Source: a virus
IMG/VR virus record: IMGVR_UViG_3300044997_000693
Location: 1-64,000 of that record
DNA length: 64,000 bases
Direction: 5' to 3' (one strand)
Numbering within the stretch: position 1 is the first letter of the stretch; every line of letters starts with the position of its first letter. Below, in pieces: positions 2-58,258 of the stretch. Below the pieces are notes generated by a model. That model did not search any database, was not told the DNA's origin, and saw only the letters and a list, made by a program, of their open reading frames with translations. A program made the translations under genes and the position numbers.

Positions 2-1843
2 TTTTTCGACATTGAGGTAGCGTTTGACCCTGAGCGTGGGTTTTCCCCTGTGGAGGATCCGTTCAATCCCATCACAGCCATATCAGTGTATTTGACCTGG
101 ATAGATCAACTGGTCACACTGGTGGTACCACCCAATCACATGAGTCGGGACACTGCAGAGGAAATTGCGAGCAAGTTTTCGAACACAGTGTTGTTTGAGC
201 GCGAACAACACATGCTCGACGCATTTCTTGATCTCATACAAGATGCCGATGCACTGTCGGGCTGGAACAGCGAAGGCTATGACATACCCTATACTGTGAA
301 CCGTGTGACTCGTGTGCTGAGCCGAGACGATAGTCGACGCTTTTGTCTCTGGGACCAGTATCCCAAAAAGCGCATATTCGAACGCTTTGGTGCCGAAAAC
401 GAAACCTATGATCTGGTGGGCCGAGTGCACATGGACTATATGCAACTGTATCGCAAGTACACCTATGAAGAGCGACACAGCTACAGCTTGGATGCCATTG
501 GCGAGTACGAACTCAACGAATGCAAAACCGCATTCGAAGGCACTTTGGATCAGTTGTACAATCAAAACTTCCGCACATTTATTGAATACAATCGCCAGGA
601 CACCATGCTGTTGGCCAAGCTGGACCAGAAGTTGAGATTTCTAGACCTGGCCAACGAACTGGCTCATGCCAACACTGTGTTGCTACAGACCACCATGGGT
701 GCTGTGGCTGTGACCGAACAGGCCATCATCAACGAAGCACACGAACGCGGCATGGTAGTGCCCAATCGCAAGCAACGACTCACTGACGATGACACCCAGG
801 CCGCCGGTGCCTATGTGGCTGTGCCCAAAAAAGGCATACACGAGTGGGTGGGATCAGTGGACATCAACAGTTTGTATCCCTCAGCCATTCGTGCACTCAA
901 CATGGGACCCGAAACCATTGTGGGTCAACTGAGACCCATCATGACTGACCGACTCATTGCTGATCGCATGCGGTCGGGGGCCAGCTTTGCTGCTGCTTGG
1001 GAGGGCTTGTTTGGCAGCTTGGAATATACCGCAGTGATGGAACAGCAGCGTGGTACTGAAATCACCATTGACTGGAGTTCAGGCAACGAGTCGGTGCATT
1101 CAGCAGCAGAAATCTGGCGCATGATATTTGACTCTAACCAGCCTTGGATGCTCACTGCCAATGGCACCATAGTGACCTATGAAGTTAAAGGAGTGGTTGC
1201 CGGTCTGTTGGAACGCTGGTACTCCGAGCGAAAAGACCTGCAGGCACGAAAGAAACAGGCACAGAACAAAAAAGAAGAAACCTTCTGGGACAAGCGTCAG
1301 CTGGTGAAAAAAATTAACTTGAACAGTCTATATGGGGCAATTTTGAATCCCGGCTGCAGATTTTTCGATCACAGGATTGGACAAAGTACTACCCTGACCG
1401 GTCGTGCCATTGCTCGGCACATGAATGCCTACATCAACGAGTGCATCACAGGCCAATACGATCATCAAGGTGCAGCCATCATCTATGGTGACAGTGTCAC
1501 AGGTGACACCAAAATCCGAACAGACGACGGGGAAACAACCATCGAAGAATTATTTACACAATGTCTAGACCATAGCATCATCGGAACCAAAGAATACGGA
1601 ACACAATGCTTTGCCAAAGTTGTTGGATTTAACTCGTTTGAAGATCATCCGGTCATGAGTGAGATTTCTTATGTCATGCGGCATAAAACCAAAAAGAAAA
1701 TCTTTAAAATAGTTCTCGAAAATGGCAAAGAAATCAAAGTCACTCAAGACCACAGTGTCATGGTAGATCGTGACGGATTTTTAATCGAAGTCAAGCCAAC
1801 CGAAATATTGCCCACGGATTTGATTATCTGTTTACAGACATAA
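2..1843 (+). CDS. DNA polymerase family B, N-terminal part fused to split-intein N half (5' partial)
   Basis: Replicative T4 gp43-like DNA polymerase; the frame is open to the window edge, so the true start lies upstream and the GTG at 50 is not a start. Visible motifs in order: ExoI FFDIE, ExoII around ALSGWNSEGYD, ExoIII YNRQD, polymerase motif A DINSLYPS, motif B KKINLNSLYG, then IIYGD, the first half of motif C. From nt 1493 the reading continues not into TDS but into a 116-residue intein N domain: block A SVTGDTKI with Ser at position 1, and block B TQDHSVMV. The host protein is therefore incomplete without trans-splicing to the product of 2797-3780. The split-intein assignment rests on these blocks; splicing itself is inferred. 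Confidence 0.95.
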   Translation, partial: FFDIEVAFDPERGFSPVEDPFNPITAISVYLTWIDQLVTLVVPPNHMSRDTAEEIASKFSNTVLFEREQHMLDAFLDLIQDADALSGWNSEGYDIPYTVNRVTRVLSRDDSRRFCLWDQYPKKRIFERFGAENETYDLVGRVHMDYMQLYRKYTYEERHSYSLDAIGEYELNECKTAFEGTLDQLYNQNFRTFIEYNRQDTMLLAKLDQKLRFLDLANELAHANTVLLQTTMGAVAVTEQAIINEAHERGMVVPNRKQRLTDDDTQAAGAYVAVPKKGIHEWVGSVDINSLYPSAIRALNMGPETIVGQLRPIMTDRLIADRMRSGASFAAAWEGLFGSLEYTAVMEQQRGTEITIDWSSGNESVHSAAEIWRMIFDSNQPWMLTANGTIVTYEVKGVVAGLLERWYSERKDLQARKKQAQNKKEETFWDKRQLVKKINLNSLYGAILNPGCRFFDHRIGQSTTLTGRAIARHMNAYINECITGQYDHQGAAIIYGDSVTGDTKIRTDDGETTIEELFTQCLDHSIIGTKEYGTQCFAKVVGFNSFEDHPVMSEISYVMRHKTKKKIFKIVLENGKEIKVTQDHSVMVDRDGFLIEVKPTEILPTDLIICLQT

Positions 1844-1846
1844 ATA
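1839..1846 (+). promoter_or_regulatory. T4-late-like -10 box ahead of endonuclease
   Basis: CATAAATA, one base from the T4 late consensus TATAAATA. It overlaps the stop codon of the intein N half and sits 25 nt before the endonuclease ATG, which has its own Shine-Dalgarno CAGGAG near 1856. Functional only if the phage has a gp55-like late sigma factor, which is not visible here. Confidence 0.3.
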
Positions 1847-1870
1847 GTATGGTCACAGGAGTATTGCCAT

Positions 1871-2821
1871 ATGATCACATGTCTAGAATGCGGGGCGCAG
1901 GAAAAACGACTGCAATGGACCCACTTTAAATTTAAATGCACCGGCAGATTTCGCAACGGTAAAGAATACATGGCAGCATATCCGGGTGCAAAAGTGGTTG
2001 ATGCATCTGTGGCAGCCAAAACTGCAGTGACTTTAAAAAATTTGATATCGAAATATGGAGAAAAAGAAGGCACTGCGCGATGGGAACAATACAAGCAAAA
2101 GCAAGCGTATTCAAATTCCTTTGAATACAAACAACAAAAGCACGGATGGACGAAAGAAGAGTTCGATCGATTTAATTCTTCTCGTGCAGTTACTTTGATT
2201 AACATGATTTCAAAGTATGGCGAGATTGACGGGATCAAAAGATGGGAAGACTATTGTGAAAGACAAGCATACACAAACACCAAAGAATATTTCTTAGAAA
2301 AATACGGAATAGAATTTGGCTTGGAAAAATACAAACAGATTAACAAAGAAAAAGCAGTCAATGACCCCAAAATACTAGCTCATAAACTTGAGATCACAAT
2401 CGATGATGCGGTTGATATAATCTTGACAAGACAATCTCGATTCTTCTCTAGCAATCTCGAACTGGAATTTGTCAATGAGCTAGAGCAGTTAGTGGGAACA
2501 CTGGAATATACTAATCTTGTCAGACCGTTCGGTAAATGGTCTCAACTGCTTGACACATATGTTGTGTTTGACATCAAACACAAAAATTGTATAATAGAGT
2601 TCAATGGAGATTATTGGCATGCCAATCCAAAATTATTTTTGCCTGATGCCGTGATACGAGGCAAAAAAGCCAGAGATATCTGGGAACGAGATAGATTAAA
2701 ACTACAAACAGCAAGAGATTTGGGTTTTTGCACTTTTGTAGTATGGGAGTCTGCTTTTAAAGCAAATAGGATTGAAACTATTAGAACGGTTGCAGAATGG
2801 ATATTGAAAGAACAAGAGTAA
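1871..2821 (+). CDS. Free-standing Vsr-like homing endonuclease between split-intein halves
   Basis: 316-aa endonuclease that would cut the intein-less polymerase gene and drive homing of the locus. The N-terminus (residues 1-40) has a CLEC...H...C pattern followed by EYMAAYPGA, like MucR/Ros-type DNA-binding modules. Two internal repeats of an ISKYGE...RWE..Y motif follow (about residues 55-75 and 115-135). The C-terminal catalytic domain shows IIEFNGDYWHANP, then W..D..K....A..LGF..FVVWES, the layout of the Vsr-like family described for fractured, split-intein genes (Dassa and colleagues, 2009). It starts 27 nt after the intein N stop and its 3' end overlaps the intein C half by 25 nt in another frame. 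AT-richer than the polymerase, as expected for a mobile insert. Confidence 0.9.
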   Translation: MITCLECGAQEKRLQWTHFKFKCTGRFRNGKEYMAAYPGAKVVDASVAAKTAVTLKNLISKYGEKEGTARWEQYKQKQAYSNSFEYKQQKHGWTKEEFDRFNSSRAVTLINMISKYGEIDGIKRWEDYCERQAYTNTKEYFLEKYGIEFGLEKYKQINKEKAVNDPKILAHKLEITIDDAVDIILTRQSRFFSSNLELEFVNELEQLVGTLEYTNLVRPFGKWSQLLDTYVVFDIKHKNCIIEFNGDYWHANPKLFLPDAVIRGKKARDIWERDRLKLQTARDLGFCTFVVWESAFKANRIETIRTVAEWILKEQE

Positions 2822-3780
2822 AATCTATAGAATGTCTAGGCGAGATCGACGACTACGTCTACGACATAAGCATTGACAAACAAGATCCATTCTTTTTTGC
2901 CAATGATGTGTTGGTACACAATACCGATTCTTGCTATTTCTCGGCTTGGCCTGCCATAAAGAACGAAGTTTCCGCTGGCACAATGACCTGGTCAAAAGAA
3001 ACCTGCATTCAGCTGTATGACAGCATAGCCGAACAGGTCAACGCCAGCTTTCCGGCATTCATGGAACAGGCGTTTCACTGTCCTAGAGATTCTGGCGAGC
3101 TAATCCGGGCTGGTCGAGAGCTGGTGGCAGACCGCAGTCTCTTTATTACCAAAAAACGCTATGCTGTCAACATCATTGACCTAGAAAACACCCGCCTGGA
3201 TGTGGGCGGGCGGCCTGGCAAGACCAAGGCCATGGGACTGGACCTCAAACGATCTGACACTCCCCGGGTGATCCAGGACTTTTTGCTGGAGATACTGGAA
3301 CGAGTGTTGTCGGGCGCCGATCGCGAAGGCATTGTGGAGCGTATTAGAGAATTCAAGTATGAGTTTGCCGAACGCCCGGGTTGGGAAAAAGGCTCGCCCA
3401 AACGTGTCAATAATCTAACCCGGTACAGCAAAGAAGAAGCTAGACTGGGCCGGGCCAACATGCCCGGGCATGTGCGAGCCGCCATCAACTGGAATAACAT
3501 GCGGCGCATGAACAACGATAACTACAGCATGCAAATTGTTGACGGTATGAAAACCATTGTGTGCAAACTCAAGTCCAATCCCCTGGGCTGGACCAGCATC
3601 GGCTATCCCACAGACGAAATGCATTTACCTCAGTGGTTTAAAGAACTGCCATTCGATCATGCCGAAATGGAGGCCACTGTAGTGGACCAAAAAATTGACA
3701 ATCTGTTGGGCGTGTTGGACTGGGACCTGGCCGCAGCCACCAACACCGAAAATACTTTCCAAACATTATTTGAGTGGTGA
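2797..3780 (+). CDS. Split-intein C half fused to DNA polymerase family B C-terminal part
   Basis: Residues 1-42 form the intein C domain: block F VYDISIDKQDPFFFANDV and block G LVHN with terminal His-Asn. Residue 43 is Thr, beginning TDSCYF, so ligation to the upstream half restores IIYGD-TDS, the catalytic motif C of family B polymerases. Downstream is the KKRY motif and thumb domain. The C-terminus ends NTFQTLFEW, a hydrophobic tail like the clamp-binding tail of T4 gp43 and compatible with the gp45-like clamp encoded at 4794. The ATG at 2797 lies inside the endonuclease gene. Neither half could polymerise alone because the two aspartates of motif C are on different proteins. Confidence 0.94.
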   Translation: MDIERTRVKSIECLGEIDDYVYDISIDKQDPFFFANDVLVHNTDSCYFSAWPAIKNEVSAGTMTWSKETCIQLYDSIAEQVNASFPAFMEQAFHCPRDSGELIRAGRELVADRSLFITKKRYAVNIIDLENTRLDVGGRPGKTKAMGLDLKRSDTPRVIQDFLLEILERVLSGADREGIVERIREFKYEFAERPGWEKGSPKRVNNLTRYSKEEARLGRANMPGHVRAAINWNNMRRMNNDNYSMQIVDGMKTIVCKLKSNPLGWTSIGYPTDEMHLPQWFKELPFDHAEMEATVVDQKIDNLLGVLDWDLAAATNTENTFQTLFEW

Positions 3781-34688: not shown

Positions 34689-34762
34689 GAAAAATATAAA
34701 CTCAAACAGTTTAGTAGTGACAAGACTAGACAAAGTATGCCACACTACAGAATAGTAGTTTA

Positions 34763-35050
34763 AGGCCTGAATAGAAAGAAGTTCTGGACTCGGCTATCGT
34801 AGGCCGACATCTCCACCAACAGCACATTAGAAATAGTGTGTTGTTGTTGGGGATGAAAGGATTCGACAGGGCAACAAGTATTGACAGGATCTACTCGGCA
34901 AAAGTAAGAAGCCGCAGAGTCAGGAATTCCTGGCCGAAGACAACAAAACAAGTAAATGCAACAGCATCTACGAGCGAAGTAGTTGTTTCTGGAAAGAATG
35001 TCAAGTTCTCTGCCAGAACAGTGAAAGCTCAATCTTTCGCGGTCTAATCA
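34763..35050 (+). ncRNA. ssrA: Circularly permuted (two-piece) tmRNA
   Basis: Acceptor piece first: GGAC, T-stem TCGGC, T-loop, GCCGA, CATCTCC, ACCA, ending at 34818. Coding piece begins at 34849 with GGGGATGAAAGGATTCGAC, the normal tmRNA 5' consensus. GGGGATG pairs with CATCTCC along all seven positions (one G-U), closing the tRNA-like acceptor across the break. The intervening 34817-34846 forms a 10-bp hairpin, probably removed in processing. The tag frame ends at TAA 35047 with ...KAQSFAV; where it resumes is uncertain. Left boundary is approximate. Frees stalled ribosomes and tags unfinished proteins. Confidence 0.88.
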
Positions 35051-55377: not shown

Positions 55378-56389
55378 TCAATTTTTTGCTGCTGGTGAAC
55401 AAGCGTTGGGTGCCTGTAGTTCCCAGCATTGTGATAAAACTTGGGCTAAACTGTATGCCCGAGCGGTGGGCCAGGATCGAATCTTTGACAAAACCAAATG
55501 GAATTGGCCAATCAATGCCGAAACTGTCATGAGCGAATTGAAGAAAGGACCATTGGTTGTGTTGATGGCACAAGATCCTTTTAACAATCATGAACAGGAC
55601 ACAGTTGAACAACTGTCAAAAATAACTGATGATTTTGTTGTGTTGAGTGGCAATGCTAGATATTTTTTGCAACCAACCCGGCATATCTGTTATTTTCCTT
55701 ACTGGTATCTCTGCCAAAAAAACCTACACCGTCCTGTGTTGGCCGACGATCATCCTAGACGATTTGCTATATCTTCATTGAATGGCAAGTCCAAATATCA
55801 TCGCATAGAAAATTATATAAAACTGCGACAACGGCCCTACTTTGATCAATTGTTGTTTTCCATGAACAACAATTTTGATTTGGCAGAATGCCGATTGGAG
55901 ACACAAATTGAATTTTGGAACGATCAGATCGTCGAACAGTTTCAATCATTGCTGTCGACCCAAGAATTAAATCAAGGTCACTATCAAGATCATTCAATTA
56001 ACCACCCGGCCTATAGCAACAGCTATGTCAATTATGTAACTGAAACATCTATAAGAACCAAAGAGATTTTTTGCAGTGAAAAAACTTGGAAACCTTTCAT
56101 GTCGGGACAGTTTGGTATTTGGTTGTCAAATCCGGGTCATGTAGAATTTTTAAGGTTTACAGGTCTAGATGTGTTTGATGATGTTTTTGATAATCATCAT
56201 TATGATGTCGAAAGCAACTTAAATCAACGAATCGATCTAATTCATGCCACAATTGACCACATCATGTCTATTGACCTTGACAAGGTATATCAGGCCACAT
56301 TGTCCAGAAGACAGGCCAACATAGATCGATTTTACAGCGACATGTTTGAAGCTGTATTGACCAAGCAATGTGAAGATTATCAATTATGA
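55364..56389 (+). CDS. Glycosyltransferase-like protein, TEKTW family (3 of 4)
   Basis: About 341 aa. TTG 55364 is chosen because the ATG at 55316 would overlap the previous gene by 62 nt; the start is uncertain. FCSEKTWKPFMSGQFGIWLSNPG, then LRFTGLDVFDDVFDNHHYD and LNQRIDLIHA match the family at 12475. Overlaps thyX by 4 nt, an odd pairing of glycan and nucleotide genes. Confidence 0.6.
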   Translation: MENSNQFFAAGEQALGACSSQHCDKTWAKLYARAVGQDRIFDKTKWNWPINAETVMSELKKGPLVVLMAQDPFNNHEQDTVEQLSKITDDFVVLSGNARYFLQPTRHICYFPYWYLCQKNLHRPVLADDHPRRFAISSLNGKSKYHRIENYIKLRQRPYFDQLLFSMNNNFDLAECRLETQIEFWNDQIVEQFQSLLSTQELNQGHYQDHSINHPAYSNSYVNYVTETSIRTKEIFCSEKTWKPFMSGQFGIWLSNPGHVEFLRFTGLDVFDDVFDNHHYDVESNLNQRIDLIHATIDHIMSIDLDKVYQATLSRRQANIDRFYSDMFEAVLTKQCEDYQL

Positions 56390-57054
56390 AAGCGACCTTG
56401 ATCTCGTCGAGTCAACCCAGCGCAGAGCTGGCAAGTCAGGGCATCAACACGGCCCAAGAATTAGTTGCTTACTGTGCCAGGGTCAGCAATCCGGCCAATC
56501 AAAACAACACAGACACCAGTGAAAAGCTGATCCGTTACCTTATCAAACATGCTCATTGGAGTCCACTTGAAATGGTATCGGCCTGTCTAGAAATCGAAAC
56601 CACACGTGATATAGCACGTCAGATCTTACGCCATCGTAGTTTCAGCTTCCAGGAATTCAGTCAACGATACGCTGTGGCCGACCTAGGTTTTGAATTCAAG
56701 GAAACCCGTTTACAAGACGTTAAGAATAGACAAAACAGCCTGGCCACAGATGATCCAGAATTAGATCGGTGGTGGCAAAGTCAGCAAGCATTTGTCAACA
56801 CTCATGTCAATATGATCTATAACAAGGCCATTGAGTTAGGTATTGCCAAAGAACAAGCCAGGGCTATCTTACCCGAAGGCATTACCATCAGCAGGCTGTA
56901 TATGCAAGGCACACTACGCAGTTGGCTACACTATATCGAGTTGCGAACTGGTCCCGAAACACAAAAAGAACATAGACTGGTAGCACAGGCCTGTGCGGCT
57001 GCATTGGCGCCTATTTTCCCAATGGTTAGTGAATTTGTATCGCACAATGCATAA
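56386..57054 (+). CDS. thyX: Flavin-dependent thymidylate synthase
   Basis: 222 aa. RHRSFSFQEFSQRY near residue 81 is the ThyX motif (RHRxxSxxxxSxRY); RSWLHYIELRT near residue 182 is the conserved C-terminal region. Makes dTMP from dUMP using FAD and methylenetetrahydrofolate, to supply phage DNA synthesis. Confidence 0.94.
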   Translation: MKATLISSSQPSAELASQGINTAQELVAYCARVSNPANQNNTDTSEKLIRYLIKHAHWSPLEMVSACLEIETTRDIARQILRHRSFSFQEFSQRYAVADLGFEFKETRLQDVKNRQNSLATDDPELDRWWQSQQAFVNTHVNMIYNKAIELGIAKEQARAILPEGITISRLYMQGTLRSWLHYIELRTGPETQKEHRLVAQACAAALAPIFPMVSEFVSHNA

Positions 57055-58258
57055 ATTACCTGCAAATTTTTGCATTGCTCCGTTTACACAAGTGACCACA
57101 CACCCCAGTGGAAGTTTTAGTCCGTGCCCGTATCTAGGAGGCACAGTATGGTCTACACAATATGCCACAATCCTTGAACGCTTTCAGGGACAAGATCTTG
57201 AACACTTGCGTTCGCAGTTCTTGTCAAACCAGCAGTCGCCGGTGTGTGAAAGGTGTTGGCACGAAGAACGCAACAATAAAAAAAGTTTAAGACTCAGACT
57301 TTACGATCCTGTGAACAAAACCAGCGATCATGCCATCATCAGCAACAGCTCAATTGTGCCAGACTTGACACACGGCCTGACAGACAAAAAATATCTTACA
57401 GACTTAAAAATTCTAACCATTAAAAATGGCAATATCTGTAATGCCAAATGTAGGGTGTGTCATCCTGGCGACAGTAGCCGATGGGCCGCAGAGGATGCTG
57501 TAAAGTTAAAACAAATACTGGGTAAAGAAATATACAATATAAACTCTGTCGAACGTAATTGGACTGACCAACAGTGCGATGAAATATTTGAAATCAGTAA
57601 AACTCTAGCGAGACTGGAATTGTTTGGTGGCGAACCGTTGTTCAACAAAAAAGTTCTCAAGTTGTTAGATCGCATCATTGATGCCGGCCACAGTGACAAG
57701 ATCAATTTGTATATAAATACAAACGGTAGCGTGAATTTAATACAGCAGGTACCACAAATCGCCAAATTTAAAGAAGTCGAAATTGGTGTCAGTATCGACG
57801 ACATTGGCAAAAGATTCAACTATCAACGTCATGGACTTGAATACGACCATGTTGTAGACAACATAAAGCAATGGCAACAACACTTTACCAATGCCAACAC
57901 TCCCTTGTATATAGACAGTATAACCACTGTGAGCATCTACAACGTGTGGTACTTGCCCGAAATCAAGGAGTCTGTAAAAAAGATTTTACCGCAACCACCT
58001 TTTTGGAATCTGTTGGTAAATCCTGATCATCTGTTTATTAAAAATTTACCCGATTATGTCAAACAACAGGTCGTTAAAAAACTCGGAGCGGATCCGGAAT
58101 TCGAAGAGATTATAAACGTATTGTCACAGGCAAGAGATTCCGCTGCTTGGATAAAATTTATCCAAGTAAGAAATGCTCTGGACACTATCCGAAGTGAAAA
58201 TTTTCAACAGATATTTCCAGAGTGGGCTGCAATGATTGATGCTGGTTCAAACGCATAA
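57047..58258 (+). CDS. Radical SAM enzyme, twitch type
   Basis: 403 aa; ATG 57047 overlaps the thyX stop. NICNAKCRVCHPGDSSRW contains CX3CX2C; LELFGGEPLF is the SAM-binding GGE motif. The N-terminal segment FCIAPFTQVTTHPSGSFSPCPY and CERCWHEE hold further cysteines for an auxiliary cluster. Substrate unknown. Confidence 0.82.
   Translation: MHKLPANFCIAPFTQVTTHPSGSFSPCPYLGGTVWSTQYATILERFQGQDLEHLRSQFLSNQQSPVCERCWHEERNNKKSLRLRLYDPVNKTSDHAIISNSSIVPDLTHGLTDKKYLTDLKILTIKNGNICNAKCRVCHPGDSSRWAAEDAVKLKQILGKEIYNINSVERNWTDQQCDEIFEISKTLARLELFGGEPLFNKKVLKLLDRIIDAGHSDKINLYINTNGSVNLIQQVPQIAKFKEVEIGVSIDDIGKRFNYQRHGLEYDHVVDNIKQWQQHFTNANTPLYIDSITTVSIYNVWYLPEIKESVKKILPQPPFWNLLVNPDHLFIKNLPDYVKQQVVKKLGADPEFEEIINVLSQARDSAAWIKFIQVRNALDTIRSENFQQIFPEWAAMIDAGSNA

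What the first reader, a model, noticed from the sequence alone, without database searches (positions are those of the whole stretch)
1493..2925. DNA polymerase fractured at its catalytic YGD/TDS motif by a split intein with a free-standing Vsr-like endonuclease
The polymerase N part ends IIYGD and runs into a 116-aa intein N domain. A separate 316-aa endonuclease gene follows. A 42-aa intein C domain ending HN then precedes TDSCYF. Removing these restores IIYGD-TDS exactly. Fractured genes with split inteins and Vsr-like endonucleases were described from marine metagenomes (Dassa and colleagues, 2009). Here the whole arrangement is in one contig, at the most conserved polymerase site, with the endonuclease and intein C genes overlapping by 25 nt. 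Replication would depend wholly on trans-splicing.
Basis: partly seen in the sequence, partly recalled or inferred. Interest (0 to 1): 0.88.

Follow-up and report, generated by a model that had tools for sequence, protein, structure and literature searches.

The report
Phage DNA polymerase split by intein
A freshwater phage's DNA polymerase gene is broken in two at its active site by a mobile protein-splicing element that carries its own DNA-cutting enzyme; the arrangement is real and almost certainly works, but the same kind is already known from other phages, one of them shown to splice in the laboratory.

Summary
The PolB N-half runs to IIYGD and continues into a 116-aa intein N-fragment (1493-1840). 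A separate 316-aa gene follows (1871-2821). A 42-aa intein C-fragment ending HN (2797-2922) then leads into TDSCYF, with a 25-nt overlap. The joined flanks align without a gap over 2,342 nt to an uninterrupted relative. All key splicing residues are present (Ser1, NX RH, N3 DHS, HN, Thr+1), and the best solved relative is the split intein of Aeromonas phage Aes123 PolB (9HTH). The 316-aa protein carries a Vsr-like nuclease domain. What is added here is family-level evidence. In four pairs of viral contigs, cassettes 98-99.7% identical sit in polymerases only 72-84% identical. Intein presence changes at least 8-9 times on the polymerase tree. Five relatives lost most or all of the endonuclease but stay split and keep the IntC start inside the endonuclease's tail. 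The insertion point shifts by 6 nt between alleles. Trans-splicing and target cleavage are inferred for this phage, not shown.

The parts
2..1492 (+). PolB (T4 gp43-like) N-extein, 497 aa seen, ending IIYGD; 5' end missing because the record starts here
   Evidence: PHROG 262 DNA polymerase E 4e-129, matched from profile position 120; Pfam DNA_pol_B and exo1
1493..1843 (+). Intein N-fragment, 116 aa plus stop; Ser1 (SVTGDT), NX motif MRH, N3 motif VTQDHS
   Evidence: Pfam PF14890; PDB 9hth Aes123 PolB1 intein E 3.4e-15; NX motif as defined in PMC10189870
1857..1861 (+). AGGAG, likely ribosome-binding site of the endonuclease gene, 9 nt before its ATG
   Evidence: read from the sequence; inference
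1871..2821 (+). Free-standing putative homing endonuclease, 316 aa: N-terminal Cys/His motif, KYG..G..W repeats, C-terminal Vsr-like nuclease (invariant D234, E243, H250; near-invariant E197, D274)
   Evidence: alignment A1 of 33; AF2 pLDDT 92.7; Foldseek top hits Vsr 1cw0/1vsr, prob 1.00/0.99; weak sequence match to Vsr; PHROG 22677, unknown function
2797..2821 (+). 25-nt overlap: end of the endonuclease gene and start (ATG) of the IntC gene in another frame
   Evidence: the start codon 42 codons before the junction recurs in most T-allele relatives and in all five reduced-endonuclease loci
2797..2922 (+). Intein C-fragment, 42 aa, ending ...FFFANDVLVHN
   Evidence: Pfam PF14890 E 3.7e-5; conserved HN and Thr+1
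2923..3780 (+). PolB C-extein, TDSCYF... (Thr+1), 285 aa plus stop
   Evidence: PHROG 262 E 7.8e-47

Best explanation
A mobile split-intein cassette of about 1.43 kb sits in the PolB gene of a phage (probably a jumbo phage), between the codons of the catalytic YGD/TDS motif. It encodes IntN (fused to the polymerase N-half), a free-standing Vsr-like homing endonuclease, and IntC (fused to the C-half). Inferred working: the two precursors associate through IntN/IntC; Ser1 and Thr+1 carry out class-1 oxyester trans-splicing, giving a polymerase with an unbroken IIYGDTDSCYF active site; the endonuclease cuts uninterrupted PolB genes at this site and repair copies the whole cassette in. Shown here: anatomy, conserved splicing and nuclease residues, the clean empty site, recent horizontal movement of intact cassettes between relatives with only short stretches of flank, and loss of the endonuclease with the split kept. 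Inferred: splicing, cleavage, and need for splicing in replication.
For: Empty-site alignment without gaps. Junctions nearly always S1...HN/T+1 or S+1. IntN closest to 9HTH, the Aes123 split intein, which trans-splices in vitro (PMC11923092). NX His preceded by Arg, as in Ser1 inteins (PMC10189870). Endonuclease fold Vsr-like. Window PolB groups with the empty L168 (95.5% aa) and intein presence changes at least 8-9 times over 83 polymerases. Cassette vs polymerase nt identity: L143/L144 99.7 vs 79%; L120/L122 99.7 vs 76%; L093/L095 99.2 vs about 84%; L098/L100 97.9 vs 72%; flanking identity falls to background within a few to about 45 nt. Reduced-endonuclease derivatives keep IntN, IntC and the IntC start.
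Against: No splicing or cleavage was measured. Whether the phage has another replicative polymerase is unknown (partial record). The Foldseek E-value to Vsr is only 0.04 and the sequence E-value 0.02, so the nuclease class rests on agreement of several weak lines plus conserved residues. The window's own cassette has no near-identical donor in the sample (best intein match about 80% aa), so its own transfer is shown only by the empty sister gene.
Confidence: 0.92

Rival explanations
1. The halves act as a two-subunit polymerase held together by the intein fragments, without covalent splicing; splicing is vestigial.
For: PolB fissions without inteins appear to be tolerated: several relatives have a second break near aa 420 with no intein there, and Aes123 has a gp43A/gp43B split.
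Against: The break is inside the catalytic YGD/TDS motif, where an unspliced pair would leave 116 and 42 residues in the active site; Ser1, NX and N3 His, HN and +1 residues are conserved across relatives.
Confidence: 0.04
2. Broken or dying polymerase gene, or an assembly artefact.
For: The record ends inside the gene.
Against: Same layout in dozens of contigs; empty-site comparison exact; low dN/dS of both exteins against L168 (0.043 and 0.055).
Confidence: 0.01
3. The intervening DNA is removed at the RNA level (intron) or skipped by the ribosome.
For: Group I introns do occur in PolB of some relatives.
Against: No Rfam intron at this place in the window; the flanking sequences are intein domains with all motifs.
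Confidence: 0.01

Closest known systems
Aes123 PolB1 split intein, Aeromonas phage Aes123 (JN377899; also AS-gz and others)
   Same: PolB split at the catalytic motif; IntN, putative VSR endonuclease gene, IntC; Ser1 chemistry without catalytic cysteine; homologous intein and endonuclease (39% aa)
   Different: Aes123 inserts after YIDTD with Ser+1, the window after YGD with Thr+1 (two codons upstream); Aes123 PolB is also split into gp43A/gp43B; its trans-splicing has been shown (PMC11923092), the window's has not
Split PolB intein of Pseudomonas jumbo phage MIJ3/PA5oct (PMC6892783)
   Same: split PolB intein with an endonuclease gene between the halves
   Different: the endonuclease is annotated HNH and does not match the window's; insertion after YGDTD with Ser+1
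Klebsiella phage KP13-7 (OP617745), unannotated
   Same: YGD/TDS insertion, split, homologous endonuclease between the halves
   Different: 32% aa identity of the endonuclease
Salicola phage SCTP-2 PolB intein
   Same: same YGD/TDS site, homologous intein
   Different: one continuous ORF, not split; described as a mini-intein
Fractured genes of Dassa et al. 2009 and EDxHD endonucleases (I-Bth0305I)
   Same: gene broken by a split intein with a free-standing Vsr-like endonuclease between the halves
   Different: paper not held in the library; compared from general knowledge and from PMC12350094 and PMC3943268

Membership tests
Fractured gene with split intein and free-standing endonuclease | conserved enzyme gene broken in two by a split intein | tested here: met
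Fractured gene with split intein and free-standing endonuclease | separate endonuclease gene between the halves | tested here: met
   ORF 1871-2821 has its own start and stop
Fractured gene with split intein and free-standing endonuclease | halves joined by trans-splicing | not testable with these tools
   needs expression
Class 1 Ser1 (cysteine-independent) intein | Ser1, NX Arg/Lys-His, N3 His, terminal HN, Ser/Thr+1 | tested here: met
   S1, MRH, DHS, HN, T+1 in the window and relatives
Vsr/EDxHD homing endonuclease | Vsr-like fold with conserved acidic and His residues | tested here: met
   E197, D234, E243, H250, D274 invariant or nearly so; Foldseek top hits Vsr, prob 1.00/0.99 but E 0.04
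Vsr/EDxHD homing endonuclease | site-specific cleavage of the uninterrupted gene | not testable with these tools
   movement of cassettes fits it
Aes123 PolB1 intein allele | insertion after DTD with Ser+1 | tested here: not met
   window inserts after YGD with Thr+1; a sister allele, not the same one

The most novel reading that the evidence does not exclude
The split intein and its free-standing endonuclease form one self-contained mobile cassette that homes as a unit among freshwater phage polymerases. Losing the endonuclease leaves the gene permanently fractured, because the IntC start lies inside the endonuclease's tail, and the insertion point has slid by exactly two codons (YGD/TDS versus YGDTD/S) at least twice.
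Probability: 0.55. Interest if true: 0.5.

Novelty: new member of a known kind. Interest (0 to 1): 0.4.

Why it matters
It gives a natural series (empty site, full cassette, endonuclease-deleted cassette, shifted site, extra genes between the halves) in one gene of related phages. The series can test how split inteins spread and why they stay split. It also supplies dozens of new Ser1/Thr+1 split inteins that resemble the biotechnologically useful Aes123 intein.

Tried and rejected
Assembly break or pseudogene: rejected. RNA intron at this place: none found in the window. HNH class for the endonuclease, as annotated in MIJ3: not supported here, the fold search points to Vsr. Search for this endonuclease in cellular genomes: only 4 relatives. 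Distant-query scan with L163: 3 loci, little added. No identical-cassette donor for the window itself was found. Dassa 2009 could not be read.

Full report
Observation. The window is the first 64,000 bases of a 71,241-base virus record. The first-stage coordinates are exact. The PolB reading frame 2-1843 has no start because the record begins inside it. It reaches IIYGD at 1492 and continues as SVTGDTKIRTDDGE... for 116 residues. ORF 1871-2821 encodes 316 residues. ORF 2797-3780 begins with 42 intein residues ending FFFANDVLVHN and continues TDSCYF. The two last genes overlap by 25 nt.

Intein identity. Pfam Intein_splicing matches both halves, though below its curated cut-off for each half alone. 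The closest solved structure to IntN is 9HTH, the Aes123 PolB1 intein (E 3.4e-15). The residues expected of cysteine-independent class 1 inteins are present: Ser1, the NX motif Arg-His defined in PMC10189870, the N3 His, the terminal HN and Thr+1. Across relatives the junctions are nearly always Ser1 and HN followed by Thr or Ser.

Empty site. L168 and L008 carry PolB genes 95-96% identical in protein with no interruption. Joining the window's flanks gives an ungapped 2,342-nt alignment at 89.4% (L168) and a 2,343-nt one at 88.1% (L008).

Endonuclease. Thirty-three homologues align with invariant D234, E243, H250 and near-invariant E197, D274, compatible with the E-D-x-H-D pattern; the pattern itself is recalled, and the family is described in PMC3943268. 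AlphaFold gives pLDDT 92.7. The two best fold matches are Vsr endonucleases (probability 1.00 and 0.99, E 0.04), and sequence search also finds Vsr weakly. The N-terminal two thirds hold a Cys/His motif and repeated KYG..G..W segments, presumably DNA-binding.

Mobility. In a tree of 83 polymerases, intein presence needs 9 changes, at least 8 forced by well-supported branches. The window is sister to an empty gene. In four pairs the cassette is nearly identical while the polymerases are diverged: L143/L144 (99.7% vs 79%), L120/L122 (99.7% vs 76%), L093/L095 (99.2% vs about 84%), L098/L100 (97.9% vs 72%). Identity falls to background within a few to about 45 nt on either side. This is what double-strand-break homing with short co-conversion predicts. 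The cassette moves as a whole, intein halves and endonuclease together.

Decay. L007, L036, L010, L011 and L169 keep both intein fragments but lack most or all of the endonuclease. Each retains the part of its tail where the IntC start lies. L010 differs from L126 by a 792-nt deletion bounded by CTGGCA repeats in a cassette otherwise 99.2% identical; L169 shows a 762-nt deletion at CCAAAAT. In none of the five is the gene re-fused. In L141 and L136 other small genes lie between the halves.

Register. The window and most close relatives insert at YGD/TDS (Thr+1). Aes123, MIJ3 and others insert at YGDTD/S (Ser+1), 6 nt downstream. On the intein-plus-endonuclease tree the two states need 2 changes.

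Known relatives. Aes123 is annotated as gp43A, gp43B1 with N-intein, putative VSR endonuclease, gp43B2 with C-intein, and its intein trans-splices in vitro (PMC11923092). MIJ3 was published with a split PolB intein and an HNH-annotated endonuclease (PMC6892783). Hence: new member of a known kind.

Limits. The contig sample is the best-scoring part of larger hit lists and includes duplicates, so frequencies are not population estimates. The jumbo-phage and freshwater assignments are inferences: the first from relatives on contigs of about 340-360 kb, the second from general impression of the contig sources, which were not looked up. No splicing or cleavage was measured. The dependence of replication on splicing is inference. 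Dassa 2009 was not readable here.

Noticed in passing
L011, L122, L129, L158, L164 (PolB region); L239 (phage AS-gz): Some relatives' PolB is interrupted three ways: a gene fission near aa 420 (in the five contigs with ORFs between, some of them other endonuclease-like genes), a group I intron (RF00028) at the LNS/YG motif, and the split intein.
   Followed up: partly
window 34754-34961 (+): Rfam permuted tmRNA match (RF04321, E 7e-10) in a phage; ARAGORN does not call it.
   Followed up: no
L141:5900-6841; L136:5850-6488: Unrelated small ORFs lie between the endonuclease and IntC, so the fracture tolerates additional genes.
   Followed up: partly
window 56386-58258: ThyX thymidylate synthase and a twitch-domain radical SAM protein, overlapping by about 60 nt, in a region with nucleotide-sugar genes.
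   Followed up: no
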